Shown here: in pieces, positions 10,930 to 24,438 of the stretch
How the letters are laid out: the number at the start of each line of letters is the position of its first letter
Numbering within the stretch: position 1 is the first letter of the stretch
Source: an uncultured Spirochaetota bacterium
GTDB lineage: Bacteria; Spirochaetota; UBA4802; UBA5550
Length of the DNA: 56,319 nucleotides
Assembly: GCA_937872225.1 (NCBI GenBank)
Contig: CALMRZ010000076.1
Coordinates: 1-56,319, forward strand
Direction of reading: 5' to 3'
Made by a program: the position numbers and the translations under genes
Notes under the pieces: model-generated
Told to the model about the DNA's origin: nothing
Databases searched by the model: none
What the model saw: the letters and a program-made list of their open reading frames with translations, nothing else

Positions 10930-11535
10930 CTACTTTTTCAACATGCCACGGATAAACTGCCGCAATCCTTCCGCCAGTTCATCCTGTATATCCTTGAACT
11001 TGCCCCCCTGGAACATGAAAAAATCAAAACCCATCATCATCTTGATGAGGGCCCGGGACGTTAAGGGTATATTTTGAATTGAAAATAGACCGCTCTTGTT
11101 TCCTTCTGTCAGTATATTTTCAATCAGCTGCTGCTCATAGCGCATATAATCGTCGAGGGCCATCATGATGAAGGAATACCGGAGAAAATATTCCTCTATT
11201 ACCCCCTTGTAGAAATCCCACAGCTTGTAGATTTTTTTTATCCTGGTGGCGAAATATACCATCAGCTTGTCCTGCGGATTCTTTTCTTTGCCGATGGCCT
11301 CGATAAGGGCCTCCTTGATCTGTTCACCCTCATAATGCACCACCGCCCTGATAAGCTCTTCACGGTTGTCGAAATAGTGGTAGAGGGAACTTTTTGTCTT
11401 GTTTAATGTCTTGGCGATCTCTTCCGTGCTTGACTTGCGCCATCCCATCTTGGAGATCACTTCACGTGATTTCTTGATAATTTCCAGTTTTACATCTTCT
11501 TTTGTTTTTGTTGTCTTTTTTTTTCTCTGGGTCAT
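10930..11535 (-). CDS. TetR/AcrR-family regulator divergent from the isoprenoid cluster
   Basis: A 201-residue TetR-type repressor. The N-terminal DNA-binding helix-turn-helix lies at about residues 15-65 (ISKMGWRKSSTEEIAKTLNK, then TKSSLYHYFDNREELI), after a very lysine-rich first 15 residues. The C-terminal two thirds are a helical ligand-binding domain without further hints. It is transcribed away from the U32/cyclase/MEP block across a 307-base AT-rich gap holding a perfect palindromic site, so it is the probable local regulator, perhaps sensing an isoprenoid intermediate (inference). Confidence 0.9.
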   Translation of the reverse strand: MTQRKKKTTKTKEDVKLEIIKKSREVISKMGWRKSSTEEIAKTLNKTKSSLYHYFDNREELIRAVVHYEGEQIKEALIEAIGKEKNPQDKLMVYFATRIKKIYKLWDFYKGVIEEYFLRYSFIMMALDDYMRYEQQLIENILTEGNKSGLFSIQNIPLTSRALIKMMMGFDFFMFQGGKFKDIQDELAEGLRQFIRGMLKK

Positions 11536-11842
11536 GATTGTTTGCTCTACCCGCTAATTTTTTATTTTTATTGTTACCAATACCGCCAATTAAGCTCTAT
11601 TTTTCTATATATTCATTCAAATTGTCAATATGGCGATGTCAAGTTATAAACTTTATGCATCACATTAGCCAAAAAAAAATCCCATCCAGGCGCATTTGCT
11701 GATCAATTATGACCTATCGCAAATTTTTTTGCAAATTTTTTTAAAAAAACAGTTGAAAAAAATAAGGCTCTGCAACTATTGAACGATTCATATTTTTGTT
11801 AAATTGATAAATCGTTCAAATATTGACGCCGGGGAGGAACCC
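11536..11842. promoter_or_regulatory. divergent AT-rich promoter region of regulator and isoprenoid cluster
   Basis: Very AT-rich, with a direct repeat GCAAATTTTTTT at about 11719-11743 and a possible plus-strand promoter TTGAAA (11753-11758) and TATTGA (11777-11782), spaced 18 bases. The -10 overlaps the left arm of the palindrome at 11779-11819. A CATTCAAAT element at 11614-11622 resembles the right operator arm with one mismatch. Confidence 0.5.
11779..11819. promoter_or_regulatory. 10-bp palindromic operator, probably for the adjacent TetR regulator
   Basis: TTGAACGATT (11779-11788) and AATCGTTCAA (11810-11819) are perfect inverted repeats with centres about 31 bases apart, three helical turns. 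The site overlaps a possible -10 box and ends 23 bases before the first structural gene. The same half-site (ATTTGAACG) appears again at 15273-15281 upstream of dxs. Confidence 0.6.
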
Positions 11843-13171
11843 ATGAAATTTTCAGTAGCCTGCAGCTTTGATGATGCCCTGCTTGAAGGCCTTGCACCGT
11901 ATCCCGTTTACGAACTTTACGGGAAACTGACATCCGATTATTTCGGCGGAGGAAGGCCGTCGTTTTATCTGCCTTCGATCGACAAACAGAAATGTGCCGA
12001 TTTCGTAAAGAAGACCCATGAGAAAGGGATGGAATTCAACTACCTGCTCAACGCATCAACCATGGGCAACATGGAATATACCAGCGAGGGCCAGCGCGAA
12101 ATAAATCATCTCCTGGGATGGCTCAATGAGATCAAGGTTGACTCGGTGACTGTCGCCAACGTATTTTTCCTGAAGCTTATCAAACGCCGGTATCCGAATA
12201 TTAAGGTCCGCGTCAGCTCGCACCGTTATACCGACAATCCAAGAAAAATACGGTTCTGGAAGGACGCCGGCGCTGACTGCATCGTCATATCAGAGGTGAA
12301 CATCCATCGGGAGTTCAAGGAGCTTGAAGCCATGCGCAAGGCCGCGGGCGAAACCGTAGAGCTGTCTCTCATAGTAAACAATTGGTGCCGTCAGGACTGC
12401 GCTATCGCGGGGAACCATGCCGTGGGATTGTCCGCCGCATCCCAGAAGAAGTCAAAGGGCTTTCCCCTTGATTTCTGCTCCCTCTACTGCAATCAGATGC
12501 GCCTTGCCGAGCCGGTGCATTACATCCGCGCCAACTGGATACGGCCCGAAGATCTCCATATCTACGAGGAGATGGGCTACGTTAATTTCAAGATCGTTGA
12601 GCGGAACACGCCGACAGCCATACTGCTGGACCGGGTCAAGGCCTACCATGACCGGAAGTACGACGGCAATTTATTATACCTCTTCCAGAATTACGCATAC
12701 CCATTGGATAAATTTTCCGAGCGGGACAAGGACGCCTTTTCCCGCAAGAGACTCCTGAAGTATTTCATCAGGCCGAAGGCGGTCAATCTCATCAAGTTCC
12801 TCAAGGTGGTCAAGTTCGGCGAAACGGGAAGCGTTCTTTTCCCCCTGCGGGGTGCAAACCCGGTTTATATCGACAACCGGAAGCTTGACGGCTTCATCGA
12901 CTTTTTCCACAAGAACAGCTGCAAGGCGCGGGACTGCGAAACATGCCGCTACTGCCACCGGTGGGCCGAAAAGGCCGTACAGATAGACCCGGCATGGAAG
13001 AAGGAGATGAACGTCATCTATGATGAACTCCTCGAAGAGATCTACAGCGGGGGATTCTGGGAAGGATATATGGATACGGCGCGAAAGGCCGTTTCAAAGG
13101 CAAGCCCGGAAAGTCAGGCAATCTTTGGCGATATCAAGAATTTTTCCCGTGTTCTGAAAAGCATGGACTGA
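11843..13171 (+). CDS. U32-family (peptidase-like) Fe-S protein
   Basis: A 442-residue protein of the U32 family, named for collagenases but including the O2-independent hydroxylation proteins UbiU/UbiV and the RNA hydroxylation proteins RlhA and TrhP. Residues 30-260 form the TIM-barrel part. Cys182, 186, 212 and 216 (NNWCRQDC and DFCSLYC) form a four-cysteine set like the 4Fe-4S site of UbiU/UbiV. A second set, Cys360, 365, 368 and 371 (CKARDCETCRYC), suggests another metal site. Start ATG 11843 has GGGGAGG upstream; the longer frame from 11804 would begin within the operator. It is first in the isoprenoid block, 33 bases before the cyclase. A role in modifying the cyclase substrate or product is inferred; protease activity is unproven. 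Confidence 0.82.
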   Translation: MKFSVACSFDDALLEGLAPYPVYELYGKLTSDYFGGGRPSFYLPSIDKQKCADFVKKTHEKGMEFNYLLNASTMGNMEYTSEGQREINHLLGWLNEIKVDSVTVANVFFLKLIKRRYPNIKVRVSSHRYTDNPRKIRFWKDAGADCIVISEVNIHREFKELEAMRKAAGETVELSLIVNNWCRQDCAIAGNHAVGLSAASQKKSKGFPLDFCSLYCNQMRLAEPVHYIRANWIRPEDLHIYEEMGYVNFKIVERNTPTAILLDRVKAYHDRKYDGNLLYLFQNYAYPLDKFSERDKDAFSRKRLLKYFIRPKAVNLIKFLKVVKFGETGSVLFPLRGANPVYIDNRKLDGFIDFFHKNSCKARDCETCRYCHRWAEKAVQIDPAWKKEMNVIYDELLEEIYSGGFWEGYMDTARKAVSKASPESQAIFGDIKNFSRVLKSMD

Positions 13172-13204: not shown

Positions 13205-15205
13205 ATGAAGTCACAGGTTCTTTCACTGTTCGCTGAAAAAGAGACAGAGTCAATTGAAACCGTTATCAAAAAAGGCATCGATTACCTTGTATCCATCCAG
13301 GATGAAAAGGGGTGCTGGATAGGGGATTATGGCGGACCCATGTTCCTCCTGCCGATGCATATCAGCGTCTGTTATATAACCGGTGAACCCATTCCGGAGG
13401 AGGACCGGCTGGGATTTACACGGTATCTGTTCAACGTTCAGAACGCGGACGGCAGCATCGGCCTCCACGCCGAAGACGAAGGCTGCATGTTCACCACAGT
13501 GCTCTGCTACGCATCCCTTCGCATACTCGGCGTTGCAAGAAACAACCCTGACATGGAGAAAATGAGAGGCTGGATCATTGCCAACGGGACAGCCCTGGGA
13601 GCCGCAAGCTGGGGTAAGTTTTTTCTCTGCCTTCTCAATCTGTATCCCTATGAAGGGATCACCCCACTCCTGCCAGAGCTCTGGGCCCTCCCCTCGTTCC
13701 TCCCCTTTCACCCTTCGAAACTCTGGTGCCATGCCCGCCAGGTCTATCTGCCCATGGCATTCCTCTACGGGATACGGGCCCGCATACCGGAGAACAGCCT
13801 CATCAGGGAGATACGCCGTGACATCTATGATACTGATTACAACGCCATTGATTTTGACAACTACAGAAATTACGTTGCCTCCGTTGACAACTACCGGCCT
13901 TTCAGCCGGCTCCTGAAGATGATCAACAGGATACAGCTGTTCTACGAAAAACATCATTCTATAAAATTCCGCGATCATGCCCTCTCGGTACTATTCGAGC
14001 ATATTCTTTTTGAAGACAGGGTAACAAACTATATCGACATAGGACCCGTCAACAGCGTCTTGAACACCCTGGTGCATTATTATGATGATCCGGGAGGCCA
14101 TCACTTTAAAAAAAGCTTCATATCCCTCATGACCTATCTGTGCGAAGGCCATGACGGGAAAAAGATGAACGGCTACAATTCGACGGCACTCTGGGATACG
14201 GCCTTTGCCGTTCAGTCTCTGTTCTCGACCGGTCTTGAAAAAGATTACGAGGCTCCCCTGAGAAAAGCCTACAGCTTCATCAGGAACAACCAGATACTGG
14301 AGGATGTGCCGGATCATAAGCGATATTACCGCCACCGGTCCCGCGGCGGATGGCCCTTCAGCGATCGGGAACACGGATGGCCCATTACCGACTGCACCGC
14401 CGAAGGTCTCAAAGCCGAAGGCCTGCTCCGCGGAGCCTTCGCCATCGATCCCTCCGTGCCGGCAGATCTTCTCGAAGACGCCGTACGTCTCATCCTTTCC
14501 TTCCAAAACAGCGACGGCGGATGGGCAACCTATGAAAAACAGCGGGGCGGGACATGGCTTGAGCTGCTGAATCCATCGAGCGTCTTTGGGGATATCATGA
14601 TTGATTATTCCTATGTGGAATGCTCCTCATCCTGCATCCAGGCCCTGGCACGAATCAAATCGAATTACAGCGGCGAACTGCGAAGAAAGATAGACCGTGC
14701 GATCTCACGGGGAGCCCTTTTTCTGAAAAAGATACAGAGGCAGGACGGCAGCTTTGAAGGATCATGGGCCGTCTGTTTTACCTACGGCACCTGGTTCGGC
14801 GTGTGGGGCTTACTCGCTGCCGGCGTTCCTGTTGACGCTCCGGAGATCCAAAGGGCCTGTAGTTTTTTACTGTCCCGCCAGAACGATGACGGCGGCTGGG
14901 GAGAAAGCTACCGCAGCTGCAAGGAACGGCGCTGGATAAACCATGATACAAGCCAGGTGGTCAACACCTCATGGGCTCTTATGACCCTCGTAAAGGGAGG
15001 ATGGGGATCGTCTCTTTCTGCGAAGCGAGCGGCCGATTTTATCATAGGCCGTCAGATGGAAAACGGCGATTGGCCGAGGGAATCCCTGGTCGGCGTTTTC
15101 AATAAAACCGCTTTGATCAATTACGAAAATTACCGCCGTTATTTTCCCCTTTGGGCACTGGGCCTCTATCGTGGGGCATTCGTGCCAGGAATAGAAGAAA
15201 TCTAA
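13205..15205 (+). CDS. oxidosqualene-cyclase-type triterpene cyclase
   Basis: A 666-residue membrane-associated (alpha/alpha)6 barrel cyclase with several QW repeats (for example QNADGSIG, QNSDGGW, QRQDGSFEGSW, QNDDGGWG). It resembles lanosterol/cycloartenol synthases more than hopene cyclases: LPSFLPFHPSKLWCHARQVY, FGDIMIDYSYVECSS and CFTYGTWFG all follow the oxidosqualene cyclase pattern. The catalytic acid motif is DCTAE (Asp396-Glu400), the epoxide-protonating type, not the DxDD of squalene-hopene cyclases; the activating Cys397 and the Cys of VECSS are both present. The substrate is therefore probably an epoxide such as 2,3-oxidosqualene, yet no squalene synthase or epoxidase lies in the window. 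It is slightly shorter than eukaryotic enzymes (about 730), mainly at the N-terminus. The product is not predictable. Confidence 0.9.
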   Translation: MKSQVLSLFAEKETESIETVIKKGIDYLVSIQDEKGCWIGDYGGPMFLLPMHISVCYITGEPIPEEDRLGFTRYLFNVQNADGSIGLHAEDEGCMFTTVLCYASLRILGVARNNPDMEKMRGWIIANGTALGAASWGKFFLCLLNLYPYEGITPLLPELWALPSFLPFHPSKLWCHARQVYLPMAFLYGIRARIPENSLIREIRRDIYDTDYNAIDFDNYRNYVASVDNYRPFSRLLKMINRIQLFYEKHHSIKFRDHALSVLFEHILFEDRVTNYIDIGPVNSVLNTLVHYYDDPGGHHFKKSFISLMTYLCEGHDGKKMNGYNSTALWDTAFAVQSLFSTGLEKDYEAPLRKAYSFIRNNQILEDVPDHKRYYRHRSRGGWPFSDREHGWPITDCTAEGLKAEGLLRGAFAIDPSVPADLLEDAVRLILSFQNSDGGWATYEKQRGGTWLELLNPSSVFGDIMIDYSYVECSSSCIQALARIKSNYSGELRRKIDRAISRGALFLKKIQRQDGSFEGSWAVCFTYGTWFGVWGLLAAGVPVDAPEIQRACSFLLSRQNDDGGWGESYRSCKERRWINHDTSQVVNTSWALMTLVKGGWGSSLSAKRAADFIIGRQMENGDWPRESLVGVFNKTALINYENYRRYFPLWALGLYRGAFVPGIEEI

Positions 15206-15561: not shown

Positions 15562-17445
15562 ATGAAAGCCATGCATACACTATTAAATAGTATTAATTCA
15601 CCGGATGACTTAAAGAGACTCGCGCCGGATTCACTCTCACAGCTGAGCGGCGAGATCAGGGATGTTATGATCAGCACGGTTTCGCGCAACGGCGGCCACC
15701 TGGCTTCAAGCCTTGGAGCGGTAGAACTTTCAATTGCACTTCATCGCGTTTTCGACAGTCCCCGCGACAAAATTATCTGGGACGTCGGCCATCAGAGCTA
15801 TCCGCACAAGCTGCTGACCGGCCGCCGTGACCGGTTCACGACCCTGCGCATGCATAACGGCATATCAGGTTTTCCCGATCCCTTCGAAAGCAGTCATGAT
15901 CCTTTTTCCGGCGGACATGCCGGCAATTCGATATCCGCAGCGATGGGCATGGCCCTGGCGGGAAAGCTGGGGGCAAAGGACTTTACGTCGATAGCCGTTA
16001 TCGGCGACGGATCGATCGGATCCGGCATGGCCTTCGAAGCCATGAACCATGCCGGCCACATGGGTCTGAAACTGATCATTATACTGAATGATAACGGGAT
16101 GTCCATATCGCCGAGCGTGGGATCCCTTTCCCGGCTTCTCGGACAGATCCGCACAGCGCATCTTCCATGGCGTGATGCTGAAACTGCAGCGAGCCAAGGT
16201 CAGGACGCCCATCCCTGCATGGACACGGGTACACCCAGTGACGAGAATCTCACCCGGGCAGAAACGATCCTTGACACCCTCGGCTTCACCTATGCGGGCC
16301 CCCTGGACGGCCACAACATCCATGAACTGGAGGCGGCTTTGCTGAATATCAAGGAAACCATGACGAGGCCTGCCGTGGTGCACATTATCACGAAGAAGGG
16401 CAAGGGTTACGGCCCGGCGGAAAACGATGCAGTCGCCTTCCACGGCATATCCCCGAAAAAGAAAAAAAGCGCCGCGCCTACCTATAGCAGCGTTTTTTCC
16501 CGCACCCTCACGCGCCTCATGAATGAAAATGACCGGATCGTGGCCATAACCGCGGCAATGAAGGAGGGGACGGGCCTTGCCGAAGCCGCGCAGCAATTCC
16601 CCGACCGGGTCTTCGATACCGGCATGAGCGAACAGCACGCGGTCACCATGGCGGGCGGCCTGGCAACGCAGGGATTCCTGCCGATTGTCGCCATATACTC
16701 GACCTTCCTGCAGCGGTCCTATGACCAGATCGTGAACGATGTGTGCCTTCTCCGCCTGCCGGTTGTTTTCGCCATAGACCGGGCCGGTATCGTCGGTGAT
16801 GACGGCAAAACCCATCAGGGAGCCTTTGATGTTTCCTATCTCCGGAGCATTCCCAACATGATCGTGTCAGCCCCGAAAAACGAAAATGAACTGCAGCATC
16901 TCCTGTATACCGCCGTTAATGCCGGCCGTCCCATGGCGGTCCGCTATCCGCGCGGAAACGGCGATGGTGTTTCTCTCCAGAGCGATTTCAGGAAGATCCC
17001 CATCGGCAGAGGGGAGCTCCTCAGAAAGGGGAACGACATGGCGATCATCGCCTTCGGCTCCGCAGTAAATCCTGCGCTGACCGCTGCGGAGATCCTCGGC
17101 GAGATGGACATTGAATGCGCCGTCGTTAATGCCAGGTTCGCCAAACCCCTTGATGAAGAACTTATCACGGGTGTGGCCCGGAGGACCGGGCGGATACTTA
17201 CTGTGGAGGAAAACGCTACTGCCGGGGGCTTCGGGAGCGCTGTAGCGGAACTTCTGTCGGCAGAGAGCATCCCCGTGAAGGTGAAATGCATAGGCATCCC
17301 CGACCGGTTTATCGGCCACGGGACCCAGGACCTGATCCGGGCGGAGCTCGACCTGGATGCAGATGGCATTGTCCGTCGGGCCAAGCAGTCGTTCCCCGAA
17401 CTTCTCTTCAATGTTGTTGATCATAAAATGGAGAACATAAGCTGA
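15562..17445 (+). CDS. dxs: 1-deoxy-D-xylulose-5-phosphate synthase
   Basis: A 627-residue thiamine-diphosphate enzyme that condenses pyruvate and glyceraldehyde 3-phosphate, the first MEP step. The N-terminal HVGHQSYPHKLLTGRR-like block (here DVGHQSYPHKLLTGR), the TPP/Mg motif GDGSIGSGM...NDNGMS, the central transketolase domain with GMSEQHAVTMAGGLA, and the C-terminal domain (from about 490) are all present; the length is standard. ATG 15562 is used, but AAGGAG at 15533-15538 is 23 bases away; an in-frame ATT at 15547 sits eight bases from it and could be a rare start. It overlaps the polyprenyl synthase by one base (TGATG). Confidence 0.96.
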   Translation: MKAMHTLLNSINSPDDLKRLAPDSLSQLSGEIRDVMISTVSRNGGHLASSLGAVELSIALHRVFDSPRDKIIWDVGHQSYPHKLLTGRRDRFTTLRMHNGISGFPDPFESSHDPFSGGHAGNSISAAMGMALAGKLGAKDFTSIAVIGDGSIGSGMAFEAMNHAGHMGLKLIIILNDNGMSISPSVGSLSRLLGQIRTAHLPWRDAETAASQGQDAHPCMDTGTPSDENLTRAETILDTLGFTYAGPLDGHNIHELEAALLNIKETMTRPAVVHIITKKGKGYGPAENDAVAFHGISPKKKKSAAPTYSSVFSRTLTRLMNENDRIVAITAAMKEGTGLAEAAQQFPDRVFDTGMSEQHAVTMAGGLATQGFLPIVAIYSTFLQRSYDQIVNDVCLLRLPVVFAIDRAGIVGDDGKTHQGAFDVSYLRSIPNMIVSAPKNENELQHLLYTAVNAGRPMAVRYPRGNGDGVSLQSDFRKIPIGRGELLRKGNDMAIIAFGSAVNPALTAAEILGEMDIECAVVNARFAKPLDEELITGVARRTGRILTVEENATAGGFGSAVAELLSAESIPVKVKCIGIPDRFIGHGTQDLIRAELDLDADGIVRRAKQSFPELLFNVVDHKMENIS

Positions 17446-18470
17446 TGAAACTACCGGACGTTTTCAACAAATACCGCGATGTCATAGACGCGGACTTGAA
17501 GGAGGTCCTGACGCCCTTTGACCTCCCGTTGTACAACATGATGCGCTACCACCTTGGATGGACTGACGCCGAAGGCCGTCCGACGGCAAACGGATCCGGG
17601 AAAGCGCTCCGTCCCACTCTCTGCCTCCTTGCCTGCGAGGCCGGGGGGGCGCCCTTCGACCGGGCGATACCGGCTGCAACCGCCGTGGAACTGGTGCACA
17701 ACTTTTCCCTCATCCATGACGACATCCAGGACGATGACAGCGAGCGCCGGCACCGCCCCACGGTCTGGAAAATATGGGGCAAGCCCCAAGCTATCAACGC
17801 CGGCACCGCGATGAACATTCTGGCCAATGTCGCGCTGATGCGGTCAGAAGTCAGGGGCCTCACAACGGAACAGTGCCAGAGCATGAGGTCGCTTCTCGAC
17901 GAGGCCACCCTGCATCTGATCGAGGGGCAGTATCTCGACATCAGTTTTGAGGGGAGGGATGACGTCACCATCGAAGAATATCTGACCATGATCAAAGGCA
18001 AAACAGCAGCCCTCATAGCCTGCTCGATGGAACTTGGCGCCCTGGCCGGGTCCGGGGACTGGCAGTCGGCGCGGAAGCTCAGGGAATTCGGCGAGTGCCT
18101 GGGCATAGCCTTCCAGGTGCGCGACGACATTCTCGGCATATGGGGTGATCCCGGCAAGACGGGCAAGAAGCAGGGGAACGATATCAGGCAAAAAAAGAAA
18201 TCCCTCCCTGCGGTATGCGCCCTGTCCGAGGGGGATTCCAAGCACAAAGCTACCGTCGCCACCATCTATGGAAAAGAAACGGTCACCGACGATGACGTGG
18301 GGATCGTTCTCGATATCATGAATCGGATGAAGATACAGGAACGCGTTCAGGCAGTGGTGGATGATTACTGCGGCCAGGCCGGCTGCATCATCCAGGGGGC
18401 AGGCATAGACGAGAGGAACACGGCTTGTTTCGAAGAGATTCTTCATTACCTGACGGCCAGGGATTATTAA
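17445..18470 (+). CDS. short-chain polyprenyl diphosphate synthase
   Basis: A 341-residue all-helical trans-prenyltransferase that joins IPP to allylic diphosphates. The first aspartate-rich motif is DDIQDDDSERRHRP (Asp92, 93, 96) and the second is RDDILGIWGDPGKTGK, the DDxxGxxGD form seen in IdsA-type synthases, followed by GNDIRQKKKSLP. A phenylalanine five residues before the first motif (FSLIHDD) favours a C15-C20 product, so FPP or GGPP. FPP would feed squalene for the cyclase. Start ATG 17445 overlaps the dxs stop, indicating coupled translation. Confidence 0.93.
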   Translation: MKLPDVFNKYRDVIDADLKEVLTPFDLPLYNMMRYHLGWTDAEGRPTANGSGKALRPTLCLLACEAGGAPFDRAIPAATAVELVHNFSLIHDDIQDDDSERRHRPTVWKIWGKPQAINAGTAMNILANVALMRSEVRGLTTEQCQSMRSLLDEATLHLIEGQYLDISFEGRDDVTIEEYLTMIKGKTAALIACSMELGALAGSGDWQSARKLREFGECLGIAFQVRDDILGIWGDPGKTGKKQGNDIRQKKKSLPAVCALSEGDSKHKATVATIYGKETVTDDDVGIVLDIMNRMKIQERVQAVVDDYCGQAGCIIQGAGIDERNTACFEEILHYLTARDY

Positions 18471-18490: not shown

Positions 18491-19540
18491 ATGAAAGCCA
18501 AGAACGTATCATCTATCAGCATAATGAGCAAGCGCAAGACGGAGCACATTGAGATTTCCCTTGAGAAAGATGTTTCCTTCAGGGATCTCACAGCCGGATT
18601 CGAGAAATACCGTTTTATCCACCAGGCCCTGCCGGAGATGGACCTGGACCAGGTGGACACGGGTGTAAGCCTTTACGGAAAGCATCTCAGCGTGCCGCTG
18701 CTGATATCCTCGATGGTGGGGGGAGTGGATGAGGCGACGGTGATAAACCGGAACCTGGCGGAAGCTGCCCAGTCCCTTGGACTGGCTATGGGAGTCGGAT
18801 CACAGCGATGCGCCATCGAAGATCCATCGGCAGTGCCTTCCTTTCAGGTACGTGACGTCGCACCGGACATCCTTCTCTTCGCCAATGTTGGCGCGGTCCA
18901 GCTTAATTACGGCTTCGGACCCGACCAGTGCCGCAGGGCGGTGGACATGATAGAGGCCGATGCCCTCTTCCTCCACCTTAACCCCCTTCAGGAGGCGATC
19001 CAGCACGAAGGAAACACCCGCTTCGATGGTCTCCTGAAGAAAATAGAATCTCTCTGCCGTTCCCTCTCAGTGCCCGTGATAGCCAAGGAGGTCTGTTTCG
19101 GCATATCGGAAACGGCGGCACGGCAGCTCGCCGACGCCGGAGTCAGCGGCATCGATGTCGCCGGAGCCGGCGGGACGTCGTGGAGCCAGGTTGAAAAATA
19201 CCGGTCTCTTTCCAAATCCGCCTACGACGTGGCCGATACGTTCGCGTCATGGGGCATACCGACGGCGGACTCCGTCGTTATGGCGAAACGGGGGGCCCCG
19301 GACCTGCCGGTCATCGCCAGCGGCGGCATACGTACCGGAATAGACGCCGCCAAGGCCGTCGCCCTCGGCGCCAGCGCCGCAGGCATCGCCCTGCCCCTCC
19401 TGAAGGCGGCGTGCGAATCACCGGAAGCGGTGCAAGGCGCCCTCCGGGAGATCATCGAAACATTCAGGATTGCCATGTTCTGTTCCGGGGTACGGAACAT
19501 CGCGGCTCTCCAGAAAACAGAACTCATAAAAACAATGTAG
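18491..19540 (+). CDS. fni: type 2 isopentenyl-diphosphate isomerase
   Basis: A 349-residue FMN-dependent TIM-barrel enzyme that interconverts IPP and DMAPP. Family motifs are clear: the N-terminal RKTEHIEISL, SSMVGGVDEATVINRNLAEA, GVGSQRCAIEDP, the Q/HLNPLQEAIQ stretch binding substrate and Mg, and the C-terminal phosphate-binding VIASGGIRTGIDAAKAVALG. Start ATG 18491 has AGGGG nine bases upstream; the longer frame from 18425 overlaps the preceding gene and is rejected. A type 2 isomerase alongside MEP genes balances IPP and DMAPP from IspH. Confidence 0.95.
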   Translation: MKAKNVSSISIMSKRKTEHIEISLEKDVSFRDLTAGFEKYRFIHQALPEMDLDQVDTGVSLYGKHLSVPLLISSMVGGVDEATVINRNLAEAAQSLGLAMGVGSQRCAIEDPSAVPSFQVRDVAPDILLFANVGAVQLNYGFGPDQCRRAVDMIEADALFLHLNPLQEAIQHEGNTRFDGLLKKIESLCRSLSVPVIAKEVCFGISETAARQLADAGVSGIDVAGAGGTSWSQVEKYRSLSKSAYDVADTFASWGIPTADSVVMAKRGAPDLPVIASGGIRTGIDAAKAVALGASAAGIALPLLKAACESPEAVQGALREIIETFRIAMFCSGVRNIAALQKTELIKTM

Positions 19541-19554
19541 GGGGTATCACAACC

Positions 19555-20049
19555 ATGACACATTCACATGCCTTTGCAGAGGATATGTTTCAGATTGAAG
19601 ATTATTCAGCGGAAAGCGAAGAACGTCTCTCCCATGTTGATCCGTCCCGAAGGATCCTCCTTATTTCACACTGCCTGCGAAGCAGCGCCGTATGCAAGGC
19701 TTCCATCGAAACCTGGGGCATCGACTGCGTAGAGTGCAATCCCCGCTGCCAGGTGAACCTGCTGCGCCGGAAGGCCCTTGACCTGGGTTACCAGGGCGTA
19801 TGCGTCGCCCCCGGCGGATCCATGGCACTCAAGTACGTGAAGGAACAGAGGCCGGCGGGAATCGTCGCCGTTGCCTGCATGAAGGAGCTCGAGGAGGGGA
19901 TCGACAATGTTGCCAGACTGGCCGGATCCGGTATAGAGGCGCCGCCCATCGTCGTGGTGCCCCTCACGAAGGACGGCTGCGTCAACACCGAGGTCAACGT
20001 CCAGATGGCGTATGATAAAATTTCAATCGGGTGCGCTGCACAATCATGA
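19555..20049 (+). CDS. DUF116-family cysteine-rich protein
   Basis: A 164-residue protein with the DUF116 pattern: ILLISHCLRSSAVCKA, ECNPRCQV, VCVAPGGSMALKYV and IVAVACMKELEEGI. Several conserved cysteines (in SHC, AVC, DCVEC and RC) suggest a metal or Fe-S site. The biochemical role of DUF116 is not established to my knowledge. It starts at ATG 19555 after GGGGG, 14 bases past the isomerase, and overlaps dxr by four bases (ATGA), so it is made with the MEP enzymes. It could serve Fe-S enzymes IspG/IspH or act on an isoprenoid; neither is shown. Confidence 0.8.
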   Translation: MTHSHAFAEDMFQIEDYSAESEERLSHVDPSRRILLISHCLRSSAVCKASIETWGIDCVECNPRCQVNLLRRKALDLGYQGVCVAPGGSMALKYVKEQRPAGIVAVACMKELEEGIDNVARLAGSGIEAPPIVVVPLTKDGCVNTEVNVQMAYDKISIGCAAQS

Positions 20050-21206
20050 AACGGATAACCATACTGGGATGCACCGGAAGCATCGGACTGCAGACCCTCG
20101 ATGTCATTCGAAGAAACAGGAACGACTTTGCCGTGGCCGGACTCTGCTGCCATTCCAGCATTGACATCATGGAGCGGCAGATAGCCGAATTCGGCGTAAC
20201 ACTGGCGGCGGTCTTCGACGAGGATCGGGCGCGTGAACTGCGGCGCAGAACCGGCATCGAAGTGCTGACCGGTCTCGAGGGCATCATAGAACTGGCGGAA
20301 CTTGACCGGGCTGACATGGTGCTGAACGCCCTGGTCGGCAGCATTGGCATACTCCCCACCGAGGCTGCAATCAGGAGCGGCAAAGATGTGGCGCTGGCGA
20401 ACAAGGAGACCCTTGTCTCCGCCGGCGATATCATCATGGCCCGGGCGCGCGAAAAGGGCGTTTCGATCCTGCCGGTCGATTCCGAGCATTCAGCCCTGTT
20501 CCAATGCCTCAACGGCGAGAACCATAAAGCGGTACGGAGGCTTCTTCTCACCTGCTCCGGCGGCGCCTTCCGGGACACGCCCCATGAAGAGCTTCAGCAC
20601 ATGACGGCGGAGGACGCTCTGAAGCACCCAAGCTGGAATATGGGACCCAAGATCACCGTTGATTCCGCAACCCTCATGAACAAGGGGTTCGAGGTGATCG
20701 AGGCCCGCATGCTCTTTGATACGGATTACGACGCCATCGACGTGGTGATTCATCCCCAGAGCATCATCCATTCACTGGTGGAGTTCGTGGACAATTCCGT
20801 GCTGGCCCAGCTCGGCTATCCTGACATGCGCCTCCCCATACAGTACGCCCTCACCTATCCGGAGCGTACCTCTGCGGAACCGGCTCCCCTTGACCTCGCC
20901 GCACTCGGGGCGCTGACCTTCAGGTCACCGGACCTTGACCGGTTTCCCTGCCTGGCCTACGCCATTGAAGCGGGTAAAACCGGCGGCACCATGCCCTGCG
21001 TCCTGAACGCCGCCAACGAAGCTGCGGTGCAGGCATTCCTTGCCGGCAGGATAGGGTTCATGGATATTGCCGCTCTTGTCAGAGAGGCCCTTGACGGCCA
21101 CGCGCCGTCAGCCAGGCCGGACCTGGATGAAATCATAGAACTGGACCTGCGCATCAAGCGGGTCATGGCCGAAAAGCTGCAGGTCGGAGACCCCTGCCAT
21201 GGCTGA
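20046..21206 (+). CDS. dxr: 1-deoxy-D-xylulose-5-phosphate reductoisomerase
   Basis: A 386-residue NADPH enzyme making 2-C-methylerythritol 4-phosphate. The nucleotide-binding GCTGSIGLQTLDVIRR opens the protein; the metal and substrate region LPVDSEHSALFQCL, the flexible loop (CSGGAFRDTP) and HPSWNMGPKITVDSATLMNK follow, all characteristic. ATG 20046 overlaps the DUF116 stop by four bases; an upstream in-frame ATG at 20031 is unneeded. It overlaps ispF by eight bases. Confidence 0.97.
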   Translation: MKRITILGCTGSIGLQTLDVIRRNRNDFAVAGLCCHSSIDIMERQIAEFGVTLAAVFDEDRARELRRRTGIEVLTGLEGIIELAELDRADMVLNALVGSIGILPTEAAIRSGKDVALANKETLVSAGDIIMARAREKGVSILPVDSEHSALFQCLNGENHKAVRRLLLTCSGGAFRDTPHEELQHMTAEDALKHPSWNMGPKITVDSATLMNKGFEVIEARMLFDTDYDAIDVVIHPQSIIHSLVEFVDNSVLAQLGYPDMRLPIQYALTYPERTSAEPAPLDLAALGALTFRSPDLDRFPCLAYAIEAGKTGGTMPCVLNAANEAAVQAFLAGRIGFMDIAALVREALDGHAPSARPDLDEIIELDLRIKRVMAEKLQVGDPCHG

Positions 21207-21708
21207 TACCGCTTCCCTCATTATACCCGATATCCGGACCGGCTTCGGCATGGATTCACATCGCTTTGCCGCCGGGGATACAAAGAAGCTTATCCTGGGT
21301 GGCGTTGAAATCCCGGGTGAACCGGGATTCGAGGCGAACTCCGACGGCGATGTCGTGTTTCACGCCCTCTTCAACGCCGTGTCCCAGGCCCTGGGCGAGG
21401 GGTCCATCAGCTATTTCGCCGACCCTCTCTGCCGTAAGGGCGTCACCGACAGCGGCGAATATCTCGCGGTGATCCGCGATATCATGGGACAGCGCGGTTA
21501 CGCAATCGGAAACATCGGCATTATGCTGGAAGGGAGCAGGCCCCGCATCGCCGGCCGTGAAGGTCCGATGAAGGACCGGATTGCCGGCATCTTTACTATC
21601 ACCCCCGACCGGATAGGCATTACCGCAACATCAGGGGAAGGACTTACCGATTTCGGCAGGGGCCTGGGCATGCAGTGCTTCTGCGTCGTCACACTGCAGA
21701 GGAAATGA
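21199..21708 (+). CDS. ispF: 2-C-methyl-D-erythritol 2,4-cyclodiphosphate synthase, divergent
   Basis: A 169-residue homotrimeric zinc enzyme that cyclises CDP-ME 2-phosphate. The zinc motif GMDSHRF and the later NSDGDVVFHAL are present, so the three metal ligands (Asp, His, His) are kept. Two departures are visible: the usual HSDGD reads NSDGD, and the normally invariant GxxFPDTD block reads SYFADPLC. The C-terminal substrate loop TATSGEGLTDFGRG also differs from the common TTEKLGFTGRG. It overlaps dxr by eight bases. Probably active but specialised or a second copy. Confidence 0.92.
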   Translation: MADTASLIIPDIRTGFGMDSHRFAAGDTKKLILGGVEIPGEPGFEANSDGDVVFHALFNAVSQALGEGSISYFADPLCRKGVTDSGEYLAVIRDIMGQRGYAIGNIGIMLEGSRPRIAGREGPMKDRIAGIFTITPDRIGITATSGEGLTDFGRGLGMQCFCVVTLQRK

Positions 21709-21712
21709 CATC

Positions 21713-23347
21713 ATGAAACTGAGAAGCTATGCGAAAATCAATCTCACCCTCGATATCCTGGGGAAAAGAGACGACGGCTACCATGAGCTGGAAAGCGTGT
21801 TCCAGCAGGTGAACCTGTTTGACGACATCATCATTCAACCAAGGGAAGACGGCGCGATCCATGTCACCGCCACGAGCGATGAAATAGCGGGCCGGAACAA
21901 CATATGCTACGGCGCCGCCCTCAGGCTCAAAGAGGAGACAGGCCTTACACAGGGGGTGGACATTGGTATCACAAAGAGGATACCGATGGGCGCCGGCCTG
22001 GGCGGCGGCAGTTCCAATGCAGCAGCCGTGCTGAAAGGGATGAACCACCTCTTCCGCCTGGGGCTGGACCGCGAAGAACTGTCCCGCATCGGCGGCGCTA
22101 TCGGGATGGATGTTCCCTTTCATCTTCAGGGAGGCACCTGCATCGGCAGGGGACGGGGGGAAATCATCGAGCCGCTTAAGCCGCTCCCGAAGCTCTACCT
22201 GGTCATCGTGTATCCCGGATTCAGCATCAGCACCAAGGAGGCCTACGGAACCCTGCGCTATGACAGGACCGGAACAACAAGGAGCACCTCCGCCTTCAGG
22301 CGCGATTATGACCTTCGCCATATCCATAACGATTTTGAATATTCCATCATCGATCGCTATCCCGAAATCGGCGCCATCAAAAAATCTCTGGGAAACCATG
22401 CACTCCTGTCCGGCTCAGGGTCCTGCGTCTTCGGCATCTACCAAGACCCTGATGAGGCGAAACGCTATTACGAGCTAATGCGGCACACGTATGAATCCGT
22501 GTTCATCACCGAGACAATTAACAAGAAAATCTTTTTTGCGGATGCGATGGGTTTTTGCGGCGGAGTGAAGCGGGCCCTCGACGGAATCTCACAGCTCGGC
22601 ACCGGAGGCACCATCCAGGTCCTGGGAAACCTCGTTCACAATGAGCAGGTAACACGACGGCTCCGCGAACAGGGAGTGCGGTTCATCAGCGACCATAAGG
22701 CGGCCGAGAACGGCACGGTCGTCATCTCCGCCCACGGCGTATCGGACAGCACGCAGAAGGAGCTCGGCGACCGGGGACTGCCGGTGGTAGACCTCACCTG
22801 CCCTGTGGTGAAGTCACTGCAGGAGATCACCAAGCAGAAGGAACGGGAGGGTAAAACGATCATTATACTCGGCGATGCAGAGCATCCGGAAATCCGGGGA
22901 GTGACCGGAAACTTATCTCGCTTCAGGGTCGTCCGCGGCGCTGAGGAGATAACCGGCGCCGACCTCCCCGCGGGCGCCTTCATTGCATCGCAGACGACCA
23001 TGGATACCGCGCACTATGATCAATTCAAGGAGACAATGCGCGCCCTGCGCAGCGACATCGAGGCAGCCGATTCGGTGTGCCACGCAACGCGCAAGCGGCA
23101 GTCAAGTGCCCAGGACCTTGCCGGCCGTTCGGACCTCGTTCTTGTCATCGGCGGAAGCATTTCAGCAAACACGAAACGCCTTCTTGACGTATGCCGCAGG
23201 AGCACGCGGGCGCTCCAGATTGAAAGCGACGAGGAACTGGACCCGGAATGGTTCGCTGACTGCGAACGGATCGGGATAACCGCGGGGGCGTCAACGCCCG
23301 ACTGGGTCATTGAATCCGTGGAAAGCAGGCTGCGATTATTATTGTAA
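21713..23347 (+). CDS. ispE-ispH: fused CDP-ME kinase (IspE) and HMBPP reductase (IspH)
   Basis: A 544-residue bifunctional protein in one unbroken frame. Residues 1-265 are IspE, a GHMP kinase phosphorylating CDP-methylerythritol: SYAKINLTLDILGKRDDGYH and the ATP loop GAGLGGGSSNAAAVL. Residues 272-544 are IspH, the 4Fe-4S enzyme that reduces HMBPP to IPP and DMAPP: FADAMGFCGGVKRAL (Cys282), DLTCPVVK (Cys363) and SVCHATRKRQ (Cys456) give all three cluster ligands, with SAHGVSD, ASQTTMD and TAGASTPDWVI also conserved. The linker is only about seven residues. IspE and IspH catalyse non-consecutive steps (4th and 7th). It begins four bases after ispF. Confidence 0.96.
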   Translation: MKLRSYAKINLTLDILGKRDDGYHELESVFQQVNLFDDIIIQPREDGAIHVTATSDEIAGRNNICYGAALRLKEETGLTQGVDIGITKRIPMGAGLGGGSSNAAAVLKGMNHLFRLGLDREELSRIGGAIGMDVPFHLQGGTCIGRGRGEIIEPLKPLPKLYLVIVYPGFSISTKEAYGTLRYDRTGTTRSTSAFRRDYDLRHIHNDFEYSIIDRYPEIGAIKKSLGNHALLSGSGSCVFGIYQDPDEAKRYYELMRHTYESVFITETINKKIFFADAMGFCGGVKRALDGISQLGTGGTIQVLGNLVHNEQVTRRLREQGVRFISDHKAAENGTVVISAHGVSDSTQKELGDRGLPVVDLTCPVVKSLQEITKQKEREGKTIIILGDAEHPEIRGVTGNLSRFRVVRGAEEITGADLPAGAFIASQTTMDTAHYDQFKETMRALRSDIEAADSVCHATRKRQSSAQDLAGRSDLVLVIGGSISANTKRLLDVCRRSTRALQIESDEELDPEWFADCERIGITAGASTPDWVIESVESRLRLLL

Positions 23348-23370
23348 AAGCGAATCAGAGGAACGGATCT

Positions 23371-24438
23371 ATGCGTGATACTTCATTGCAGATAAAAGTC
23401 GGGAATGCCGTCATCGGCGGCAGGCATATCCCGATTCAGACCATGATCAAGAACCGGGTCACTGACGTTGACCGGACTCTCGGCAAGATCGAGGCCCTTG
23501 CCGCCATCGGATGCGACATCGTCAGGATCACCGTGCCGGATATGGCCGCGGTCCAGGGGCTGCGCCGCGTATTAAAGCACTCGGTGCTGCCCATCGTTGC
23601 GGACATACACTTTGACTACCGCCTGGCGATCCTCGCGGTGGAGGCCGGCGTGCACAAGGTCCGCATAAACCCGGGCAACATCGGCGACGAAAGCAAGGTG
23701 CACAAAGTCATCGACTGCCTGAAGGAACACCGCGTCCCCGTCAGGATCGGCATAAACGGCGGGTCCCTGCCGAAGCGCCTGAAACCGCGCTTCAGGGATC
23801 CCGTGCAGGCGATGATCGAGGCCGCCCGGGAGGAAACAGGATACTTTGAGCGGCGGGGGTTCCGCGACATCATCCTCTCCTTCAAGTCCTCATCCGTCAT
23901 GGAGACCATCAATGTCAACCGCCTTGCCCGGCAGATTTTCCCCTATCCGTTCCACATCGGGGTTACGGAAGCAGGGGACCTCATCGACGGTACCGTCAAG
24001 AATGCCGCGGGAATCGCAGCGCTCCTCCTCGAGTATGTCGGCAACACCATCCGCGTCAGCCTCACCGCCCCGGAGGAGGAAGAGGTCATCGTGGCAAAAA
24101 AGATACTGGAGGCAGTGGGACGGAGGGAATCATCATGCGAGATCATCAGCTGTCCCACCTGCGGCAGGACCGACGGAGATATCGGCCTCATGGTGCGTAG
24201 CATCAAGGATACTCTGGCAGGAAAGGCGCTGAGAAAACATCTGAAGATAGCCGTCATGGGGTGTGTTGTCAACGGCCCCGGCGAGGCGGAGCATGCTGAT
24301 TTCGGCGTCGCCTGCGGAAAGGGTAAATCGATTCTTTTTAAGAACGGAACTAAATTAAAAGTGGTTCAGAATGACGACATCATGGACGAGTTGATGCTGA
24401 TGCTGGATGAATACACGATCGATTCCCCGGGTGCCTGA
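23371..24438 (+). CDS. ispG: 4-hydroxy-3-methylbut-2-enyl-diphosphate synthase
   Basis: A 355-residue TIM-barrel plus Fe-S domain enzyme converting MEcPP to HMBPP. The N-terminal half holds GCDIVRITVPD, ADIHFDYRLA and VRINPGNIGD. The cluster ligands are CPTC near residue 265 and the Cys of VMGCVVNGPGEAEHADFG, whose Glu is the fourth ligand. It ends the plus-strand isoprenoid block. Electrons must come from flavodoxin or ferredoxin. The opening QTMIKNRVTDV replaces the common QSMTNTDT, so it is a somewhat divergent member. Confidence 0.95.
   Translation: MRDTSLQIKVGNAVIGGRHIPIQTMIKNRVTDVDRTLGKIEALAAIGCDIVRITVPDMAAVQGLRRVLKHSVLPIVADIHFDYRLAILAVEAGVHKVRINPGNIGDESKVHKVIDCLKEHRVPVRIGINGGSLPKRLKPRFRDPVQAMIEAAREETGYFERRGFRDIILSFKSSSVMETINVNRLARQIFPYPFHIGVTEAGDLIDGTVKNAAGIAALLLEYVGNTIRVSLTAPEEEEVIVAKKILEAVGRRESSCEIISCPTCGRTDGDIGLMVRSIKDTLAGKALRKHLKIAVMGCVVNGPGEAEHADFGVACGKGKSILFKNGTKLKVVQNDDIMDELMLMLDEYTIDSPGA

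What the first reader, a model, noticed from the sequence alone, without database searches (positions are those of the whole stretch)
13205..15205. Oxidosqualene-cyclase-type enzyme with no epoxidase, next to MEP genes
The acid motif is DCTAE and the VECSS cysteine is present, both typical of epoxide-opening lanosterol/cycloartenol-type cyclases rather than DxDD hopene cyclases. No squalene epoxidase or squalene synthase is in the window, and nearby genes look anaerobic. Such a cyclase in an anaerobe would need an oxygenated substrate made without O2, or would use an unusual substrate.
Basis: partly seen in the sequence, partly recalled or inferred. Interest (0 to 1): 0.8.

Follow-up and report, generated by a model that had tools for sequence, protein, structure and literature searches.

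The report
Sterol-type cyclase paired with oxygen-free oxygenase
A largely anaerobic spirochaete carries a sterol-ring-forming enzyme without the oxygen-using enzyme that normally prepares its substrate, and right beside it sits a gene from a family that adds oxygen atoms without O2; the same pairing recurs in other bacteria that lack the oxygen-using enzyme, which points to a so far undescribed way to start sterol-like lipid synthesis without air.

Summary
Confirmed: 13205-15205 encodes a genuine oxidosqualene cyclase (OSC) with an intact active site, including cycloartenol-type residues. The genome has no squalene epoxidase (SE) and no squalene/phytoene synthase by Pfam search. The key point lies one gene upstream: 11843-13171 encodes a U32-family protein, the superfamily of prephenate-dependent, O2-independent oxygenases (UbiU/UbiV, TrhP, RlhA). 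In 345 Spirochaetota genomes, U32 and OSC occur in exactly the same four. In 56 OSC-bearing Myxococcota genomes, U32 adjoins OSC in 4 of 5 that lack SE and in 0 of 51 that have SE. Outside the spirochaetes the U32 gene almost always neighbours a chorismate mutase-DAHP synthase gene, which makes prephenate, the proposed oxygen donor. [quoted passage not shown] Best explanation: U32 replaces SE, giving 2,3-oxidosqualene without O2 for the OSC. The oxygen-transfer step is inferred, only about two independent switches exist on the OSC tree, and the spirochaetes' squalene source is unexplained. I found no description of this in the papers held. If true, sterols would not require O2 for their first oxygenation, which bears directly on sterane biomarkers.

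The parts
13205..15205 (+). oxidosqualene cyclase homologue, 666 aa; catalytic Asp396-Cys397 (DCTAE, bases 14390-14404) and Cys473 (VECSS, bases 14615-14629); cycloartenol-type residues Tyr/His/Ile at human LSS positions 381/449/453
11843..13171 (+). U32-family protein, 442 aa, 33 bases upstream of the OSC, own Shine-Dalgarno sequence (GGGGAGGA); cysteines 182/186/212/216 and 360/365/368/371; proposed O2-independent, prephenate-dependent oxygenase
10930..11535 (-). TetR-type regulator, divergent from the U32-OSC unit; 64% identical in the same place in G001 (L026)
11779..11819 (.). inverted repeat TTGAACGATTCAT / ATAAATCGTTCAA just upstream of the U32 gene; possible regulator site; similar half-sites with different spacing in L026
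15562..17445 (+). 1-deoxy-xylulose-5-phosphate synthase (dxs), follows the OSC in three congeners
17445..18470 (+). polyprenyl diphosphate synthase; NFSLIHDDIQDDD first Asp-rich motif without the two-residue insert, so GGPP-type by motif (inference)
18494..19540 (+). type 2 isopentenyl diphosphate isomerase
19558..20049 (+). DUF116 protein, conserved in the spirochaete clusters
20031..24438 (+). dxr, ispF, ispE-ispH fusion, ispG

Best explanation
The U32 gene and the OSC gene form one functional unit that starts sterol-like triterpenoid synthesis without O2. The U32 protein (probably Fe-S) takes the place of squalene epoxidase: it transfers an oxygen atom, most likely from prephenate, to squalene to give the 2,3-epoxide. 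The OSC then opens that epoxide with its Asp-Cys acid and makes a tetracyclic protosterol, cycloartenol-type by active-site residues. Shown here: the OSC and its intact pocket; the adjacency and co-occurrence of U32 and OSC; the absence of SE where they are adjacent; the chorismate mutase neighbours of U32 outside the spirochaetes. Inferred: that U32 acts on squalene, that the product is the epoxide, and that prephenate is the donor. Open: where the spirochaetes get squalene, since they lack squalene synthase.
For: (1) 345 Spirochaetota genomes: U32 and OSC in exactly the same four, not in three congeners (hypergeometric 1.7e-9, not corrected for kinship). (2) 195 Myxococcota genomes: U32 at 60% identity or more in 11, of which 10 have OSC (56 of 195 overall; 1.7e-5). 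(3) Among the 56 OSC genomes SE is missing in only 5; U32 adjoins OSC in 4 of these and in 0 of 51 with SE (1.4e-5). In 41 of the 51 SE lies within 10 kb of OSC, the neighbourhood that U32 holds in SE-less genomes. SE-less G073 and G059 (other samples) also carry U32 on the OSC contig. (4) U32 sits next to a chorismate mutase-DAHP synthase gene in nearly all non-spirochaete loci; prephenate is required by TrhP/RlhA-type U32 proteins (PMC6599085) and is reported as the O donor in UbiU/V-dependent hydroxylation (reviewed in PMC11574389). (5) In G368 and G526 the order is CM-DAHPS / U32 / GGR-type reductase / OSC, with HpnC/HpnD-type genes nearby; [quoted passage not shown] PMC12004948). (6) OSC pocket unchanged from SE-dependent OSCs. 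(7) G010, G073, G368, G370 and G526 have no heme-copper oxidase gene, while all ten SE-bearing genomes tested do. (8) Precedents: TrhP/TrhO and UbiUV/flavin hydroxylases are U32 / O2-dependent pairs for one reaction (PMC6599085, PMC6747719).
Against: No activity data. On the OSC tree the SE-less, U32-linked rows form one region with only two switches, so the association has few independent replicates. The U32 proteins lack the CX6CX15CX3/4C motif of most characterised U32 oxidases (PMC6747719). A sister U32 clade with a C-terminal extension occurs in SE-bearing genomes away from OSC, so U32 may have another role or be a backup. The spirochaete genomes have no squalene synthase and no CM-DAHPS beside U32. 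Two SE-less OSC genomes show no close U32: G517, and G074, whose OSC contig is cut.
Confidence: 0.55

Rival explanations
1. The U32 protein oxygenates a different molecule of the same pathway (the cyclised product or another isoprenoid), and the epoxide is made by an unrecognised epoxidase encoded elsewhere.
For: U32 proteins are known to hydroxylate aromatic rings and pyrimidines, not alkenes (PMC6747719, PMC6599085); a sister U32 clade persists in SE-bearing OSC genomes; GGR-type flavoproteins sit in some of the clusters.
Against: The adjacency of U32 to OSC is seen only in SE-less genomes. The flavoprotein has reductase motifs, is frameshifted in G073, and is absent from the spirochaete, G066, G370 and G059 loci as read.
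Confidence: 0.2
2. The cyclase acts on a non-epoxidised or different polyprenoid (plain squalene, or a GGPP-derived C20 or meroterpenoid chain), and U32 hydroxylates before or after; in the spirochaetes this would explain the missing squalene synthase and the GGPP-type prenyl synthase.
For: No PF00494 in any of the four spirochaete genomes; prenyl synthase motif of GGPP type; MEP cluster around it.
Against: The pocket matches SE-dependent OSCs at the residues checked, including the Cys533 and Asp455-Cys456 equivalents. The non-spirochaete relatives keep squalene-synthesis genes and FPP-type synthases beside the same pair.
Confidence: 0.15
3. The spirochaete takes squalene or 2,3-oxidosqualene from neighbouring organisms and only cyclises it; U32 is a co-transferred passenger.
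For: No SQS and no SE in four genomes of 90-98% completeness.
Against: U32 is 83% conserved among congeners, more than the OSC itself (69-73%), and is retained next to OSC across phyla, unlike a passenger. It does not explain the Myxococcota genomes that make squalene and lack SE.
Confidence: 0.07
4. Artefact: incomplete assemblies hide SE and SQS, or the contig is a contaminant.
For: These are metagenome assemblies; completeness is not given for the Myxococcota sets.
Against: Same gene order in three congeners and a second genus; SE missing in all four spirochaetes; the OSC contigs of G370 (204 kb) and G526 (62 kb) carry no SE.
Confidence: 0.03

Closest known systems
Bacterial oxidosqualene cyclases of myxobacteria and methanotrophs (Wei et al. 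2016, PMC4919349)
   Same: Family, fold, DCTAE acid motif, Cys533 equivalent, Ile453 cycloartenol-type residue; nested in the myxobacterial OSC clade
   Different: Those reported come with squalene epoxidase in aerobes; that study noted no anaerobe among its OSC bacteria. Here SE is absent and a U32 gene sits beside OSC
UbiU-UbiV, O2-independent ubiquinone hydroxylases (PMC6747719)
   Same: U32 domain, conserved cysteines, replacement of flavin monooxygenases in an isoprenoid pathway
   Different: About 442 aa rather than about 300-330; one U32 gene beside OSC, not a UbiU/UbiV pair; different cysteine spacing with a second C-terminal tetrad; different presumed substrate
TrhP / RlhA prephenate-dependent RNA hydroxylases (PMC6599085)
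   Same: U32 domain; prephenate dependence suggested here by the chorismate mutase neighbour; exists as the O2-independent half of a pair
   Different: Only 20.9 bits to the TrhP model (cut-off 534); no CX6C motif; linked to OSC
Squalene epoxidase (PF08491)
   Same: Proposed reaction, and position near OSC in SE-bearing genomes
   Different: O2- and FAD-dependent and unrelated in sequence; absent where U32 adjoins OSC
Bsr, bacterial C-24 sterol reductase of the GGR family (PMC12004948)
   Same: The GGR-type gene between U32 and OSC in G368/G526 has YxWxFP and the active-site Cys
   Different: Not found in the spirochaete locus; activity untested

Membership tests
oxidosqualene cyclase | homology over both toroid domains, closer to OSC than to hopene cyclase | tested here: met
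   TIGR03463 718 bits against TIGR01507 262; 1w6k E 6e-188. Note: below the TIGR03463 cut-off of 851, over that of TIGR01787
oxidosqualene cyclase | epoxide-activating Asp-Cys with second Cys, His232, Tyr503, Trp387/581, Phe444/696 equivalents | tested here: met
   all present in the window protein
oxidosqualene cyclase | cyclises 2,3-oxidosqualene | not testable with these tools
   needs expression and GC-MS
canonical aerobic sterol pathway | squalene epoxidase in the genome | tested here: not met
   none in G000, G001, G002, G010
canonical aerobic sterol pathway | squalene synthase or HpnCDE | tested here: not met
   no PF00494 in the spirochaetes; present in G059, G066, G073, G368, G370, G526
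U32 (peptidase U32) superfamily | PF01136 domain and U32 barrel fold | tested here: met
   (43 bits, cut-off 22.4); profile search hits 5d88 E 1.8e-11; Foldseek best hit 5d88 E 2.6e-10, but the model is poor, pLDDT 52
characterised U32 oxidases (UbiU, UbiV, TrhP, RlhA) | CX6CX15CX3/4C or UbiV CXnCX12CX3C cysteine motif | tested here: not met
   C182-x3-C186-x25-C212-x3-C216 plus C360-x4-C365-x2-C368-x2-C371; a separate subfamily
characterised U32 oxidases (UbiU, UbiV, TrhP, RlhA) | need for prephenate | tested here: inconclusive
   chorismate mutase-DAHP synthase adjoins U32 in relatives but not in the window; no biochemistry
characterised U32 oxidases (UbiU, UbiV, TrhP, RlhA) | [4Fe-4S] cluster | not testable with these tools
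   conserved cysteine tetrads only

The most novel reading that the evidence does not exclude
An O2-independent route to 2,3-oxidosqualene and hence to sterols exists in anaerobic or low-O2 bacteria of at least two phyla: a new U32 oxygenase takes oxygen from prephenate to epoxidise squalene for a cycloartenol-type cyclase.
Probability: 0.5. Interest if true: 0.97.

Novelty: new variant of a known kind. Interest (0 to 1): 0.9.

Why it matters
Sterol synthesis is taken to need O2 from the epoxidation of squalene onward, and fossil steranes are read as signs of local O2. Wei et al. (PMC4919349) rested that reading on finding no OSC in anaerobes and said an alternate pathway in an anaerobe might yet be found. 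The U32-OSC pair gives a named, clonable candidate for it, and it would be a new substrate class for U32 oxygenases: an alkene rather than an aromatic ring or pyrimidine. The question becomes directly testable with two genes.

Tried and rejected
Hopene cyclase: rejected by model and structure scores. SE hidden elsewhere in the genome: none. Highly divergent SQS: searched at E up to 10, nothing in G000-G002 and only a 12.5-bit hit in G010. GGR-type flavoprotein as the epoxidase: it has reductase motifs, is not in all clusters, and is frameshifted in G073. AlphaFold of the U32 protein from six sequences gave a poor model (pLDDT 52), so no active-site geometry is argued from it. Phylogenetically independent pairs: only two, too few for a test. 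Paper searches for U32 with squalene or OSC found nothing; bioRxiv and most subscription journals are not held, so an existing report cannot be excluded. The 2024 PNAS paper on an organic O donor was not held and is cited only through a review.

Full report
Observation. The ORF at 13205-15205 is a complete 666-residue oxidosqualene cyclase homologue. Its nearest solved structure is human lanosterol synthase (E 6e-188), not hopene cyclase (E 8e-47). Aligned to human lanosterol synthase, the catalytic residues I checked are kept: the equivalents of D455, C456, E459, C533, H232, Y503, W387, F444, W581 and F696. Tyr, His and Ile at 381, 449 and 453 are the residues that go with cycloartenol in the literature (PMC4919349 for Ile453, the other two from general knowledge). 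So the substrate is predicted to be an epoxide, most simply 2,3-oxidosqualene.

Genome. The window is contig 76 of a 4.69 Mb assembly, 97.7% complete. Loci that match two congeners carry the titles Spirochaetes bacterium RBG_16_49_21 and RBG_13_51_14 (matched by sequence). Neither squalene epoxidase (PF08491) nor squalene/phytoene synthase (PF00494) is found in this genome or in the three other spirochaetes that have the cyclase. Its only heme-copper protein lacks the HPEVY motif of O2 reductases, but congener G002 has a normal COX1. The genus is therefore best called anaerobic to facultative.

The neighbour. The gene just upstream, 11843-13171, is a U32-family protein (PF01136). Characterised proteins of this superfamily, UbiU/UbiV, TrhP and RlhA, are needed for O2-independent hydroxylation of ubiquinone precursors, tRNA and rRNA; prephenate dependence and [4Fe-4S] clusters have been shown for members (PMC6747719, PMC6599085, PMC11574389). 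The window protein is a separate subfamily: 442 residues, two cysteine tetrads with spacings unlike the characterised ones, and only a trace of similarity to TrhP. A profile search and a fold comparison both lead to the U32 structure 5d88, although the predicted model is poor.

Co-occurrence. In a sample of 345 Spirochaetota genomes the U32 protein (E up to 1e-60) and the OSC are found in exactly the same four. In 195 Myxococcota genomes the U32 protein at 60% identity or more is in 11, of which 10 have OSC, against 56 of 195 overall. Of these 56, only five lack SE: G066, G368, G370, G526 and G517. The first four have U32 beside OSC, with at most one gene between; none of the 51 SE-bearing genomes does. 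In 41 of the 51, SE lies within 10 kb of OSC. G073 (Black Sea, 150 m by its record name; U32 about 9 kb from OSC) and G059 (U32 and CM-DAHPS divergent from OSC) are two more SE-less genomes with U32 on the OSC contig. Thus U32 stands where SE is missing.

Prephenate. In nearly every non-spirochaete locus U32 is beside a chorismate mutase-DAHP synthase gene: G526, G368, G370, G066, G059, G365, G467, G376, G422, G466, G061, G062 and G069; in G073 it is beside the OSC instead, and G077 is the exception (domains). Chorismate mutase makes prephenate. In G368 the reading order is prenyl synthase, CM-DAHPS, U32, GGR-type reductase, OSC, the last four with junctions of a few bases, and HpnC/HpnD-type and mevalonate genes on the other strand. 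[quoted passage not shown] PMC12004948), which suggests a real sterol side chain. The spirochaete loci lack the CM-DAHPS and GGR genes and are instead embedded in MEP genes.

Trees. SE-less, U32-linked OSCs form a grade at the base of one OSC clade, with an SE-bearing myxobacterial crown nested inside; the label needs two changes. The U32 tree splits into an OSC-adjacent group and a group from SE-bearing genomes with a C-terminal extension (support 93/93; one change in all 200 bootstrap trees). The second group, also mostly beside CM-DAHPS, may be an anaerobic backup or do something else. Because there are few switches, the statistics above are not independent observations, and the direction of change is not settled.

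Mechanism. The flavin-dependent SE and the flavin hydroxylases of ubiquinone synthesis both deliver an electrophilic oxygen from O2 (general knowledge). In ubiquinone synthesis U32 proteins replace the flavin enzymes; TrhP and TrhO form another such pair. I propose a third pair: U32 instead of SE. Epoxide formation on an alkene by a U32 protein has not, to my knowledge, been shown for any member and is the main inferred step.

Open problem. The spirochaetes have the pair and an unchanged OSC pocket but no squalene synthase. Uptake of squalene, an unknown synthase, or a different chain are all possible. Confidence that U32 supplies the oxygenated OSC substrate is 0.55 overall, higher for the Myxococcota than for the window's own organism.

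Literature. No paper held links U32 or prephenate with squalene or OSC. Wei et al. (PMC4919349) explicitly state that no OSC-bearing bacterium in their study was an anaerobe and that an alternate anaerobic pathway might be discovered.

Noticed in passing
window 21713-23347: ispE and ispH are fused in one 544-residue ORF (GHMP kinase followed by LytB), an unusual joining of two MEP steps
   Followed up: no
L088 2698-6925 (G073:C30): A second, more distant U32 protein (37-39% identity) lies between two B12-binding radical SAM proteins, on the same contig as the OSC cluster of a Black Sea deltaproteobacterium; it may make further O2-independent lipid modifications
   Followed up: partly
L147 / G419:C24:92003-93211: A U32 protein of the same distant type (35% identity) in a Myxococcota genome without OSC
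   Followed up: no
L160 948-2369 (G000:C28) and L161 (G066): Divergent heme-copper oxidase-like proteins that lack the HPEVY motif (WFWWGLDLIADGLVLI instead); possibly NO-reductase-like, class unclear
   Followed up: partly
window 19558-20049: DUF116 protein conserved in the spirochaete isoprenoid clusters, directly upstream of U32-OSC in G010; function unknown
   Followed up: no
L090 1648-5763, L088 7663-11529: Large cysteine-rich proteins a few kb from the OSC clusters in G066 and G073
   Followed up: no
window 11779-11819: Inverted repeat TTGAACGATTCAT/ATAAATCGTTCAA between the TetR gene and U32; possible operator
   Followed up: partly
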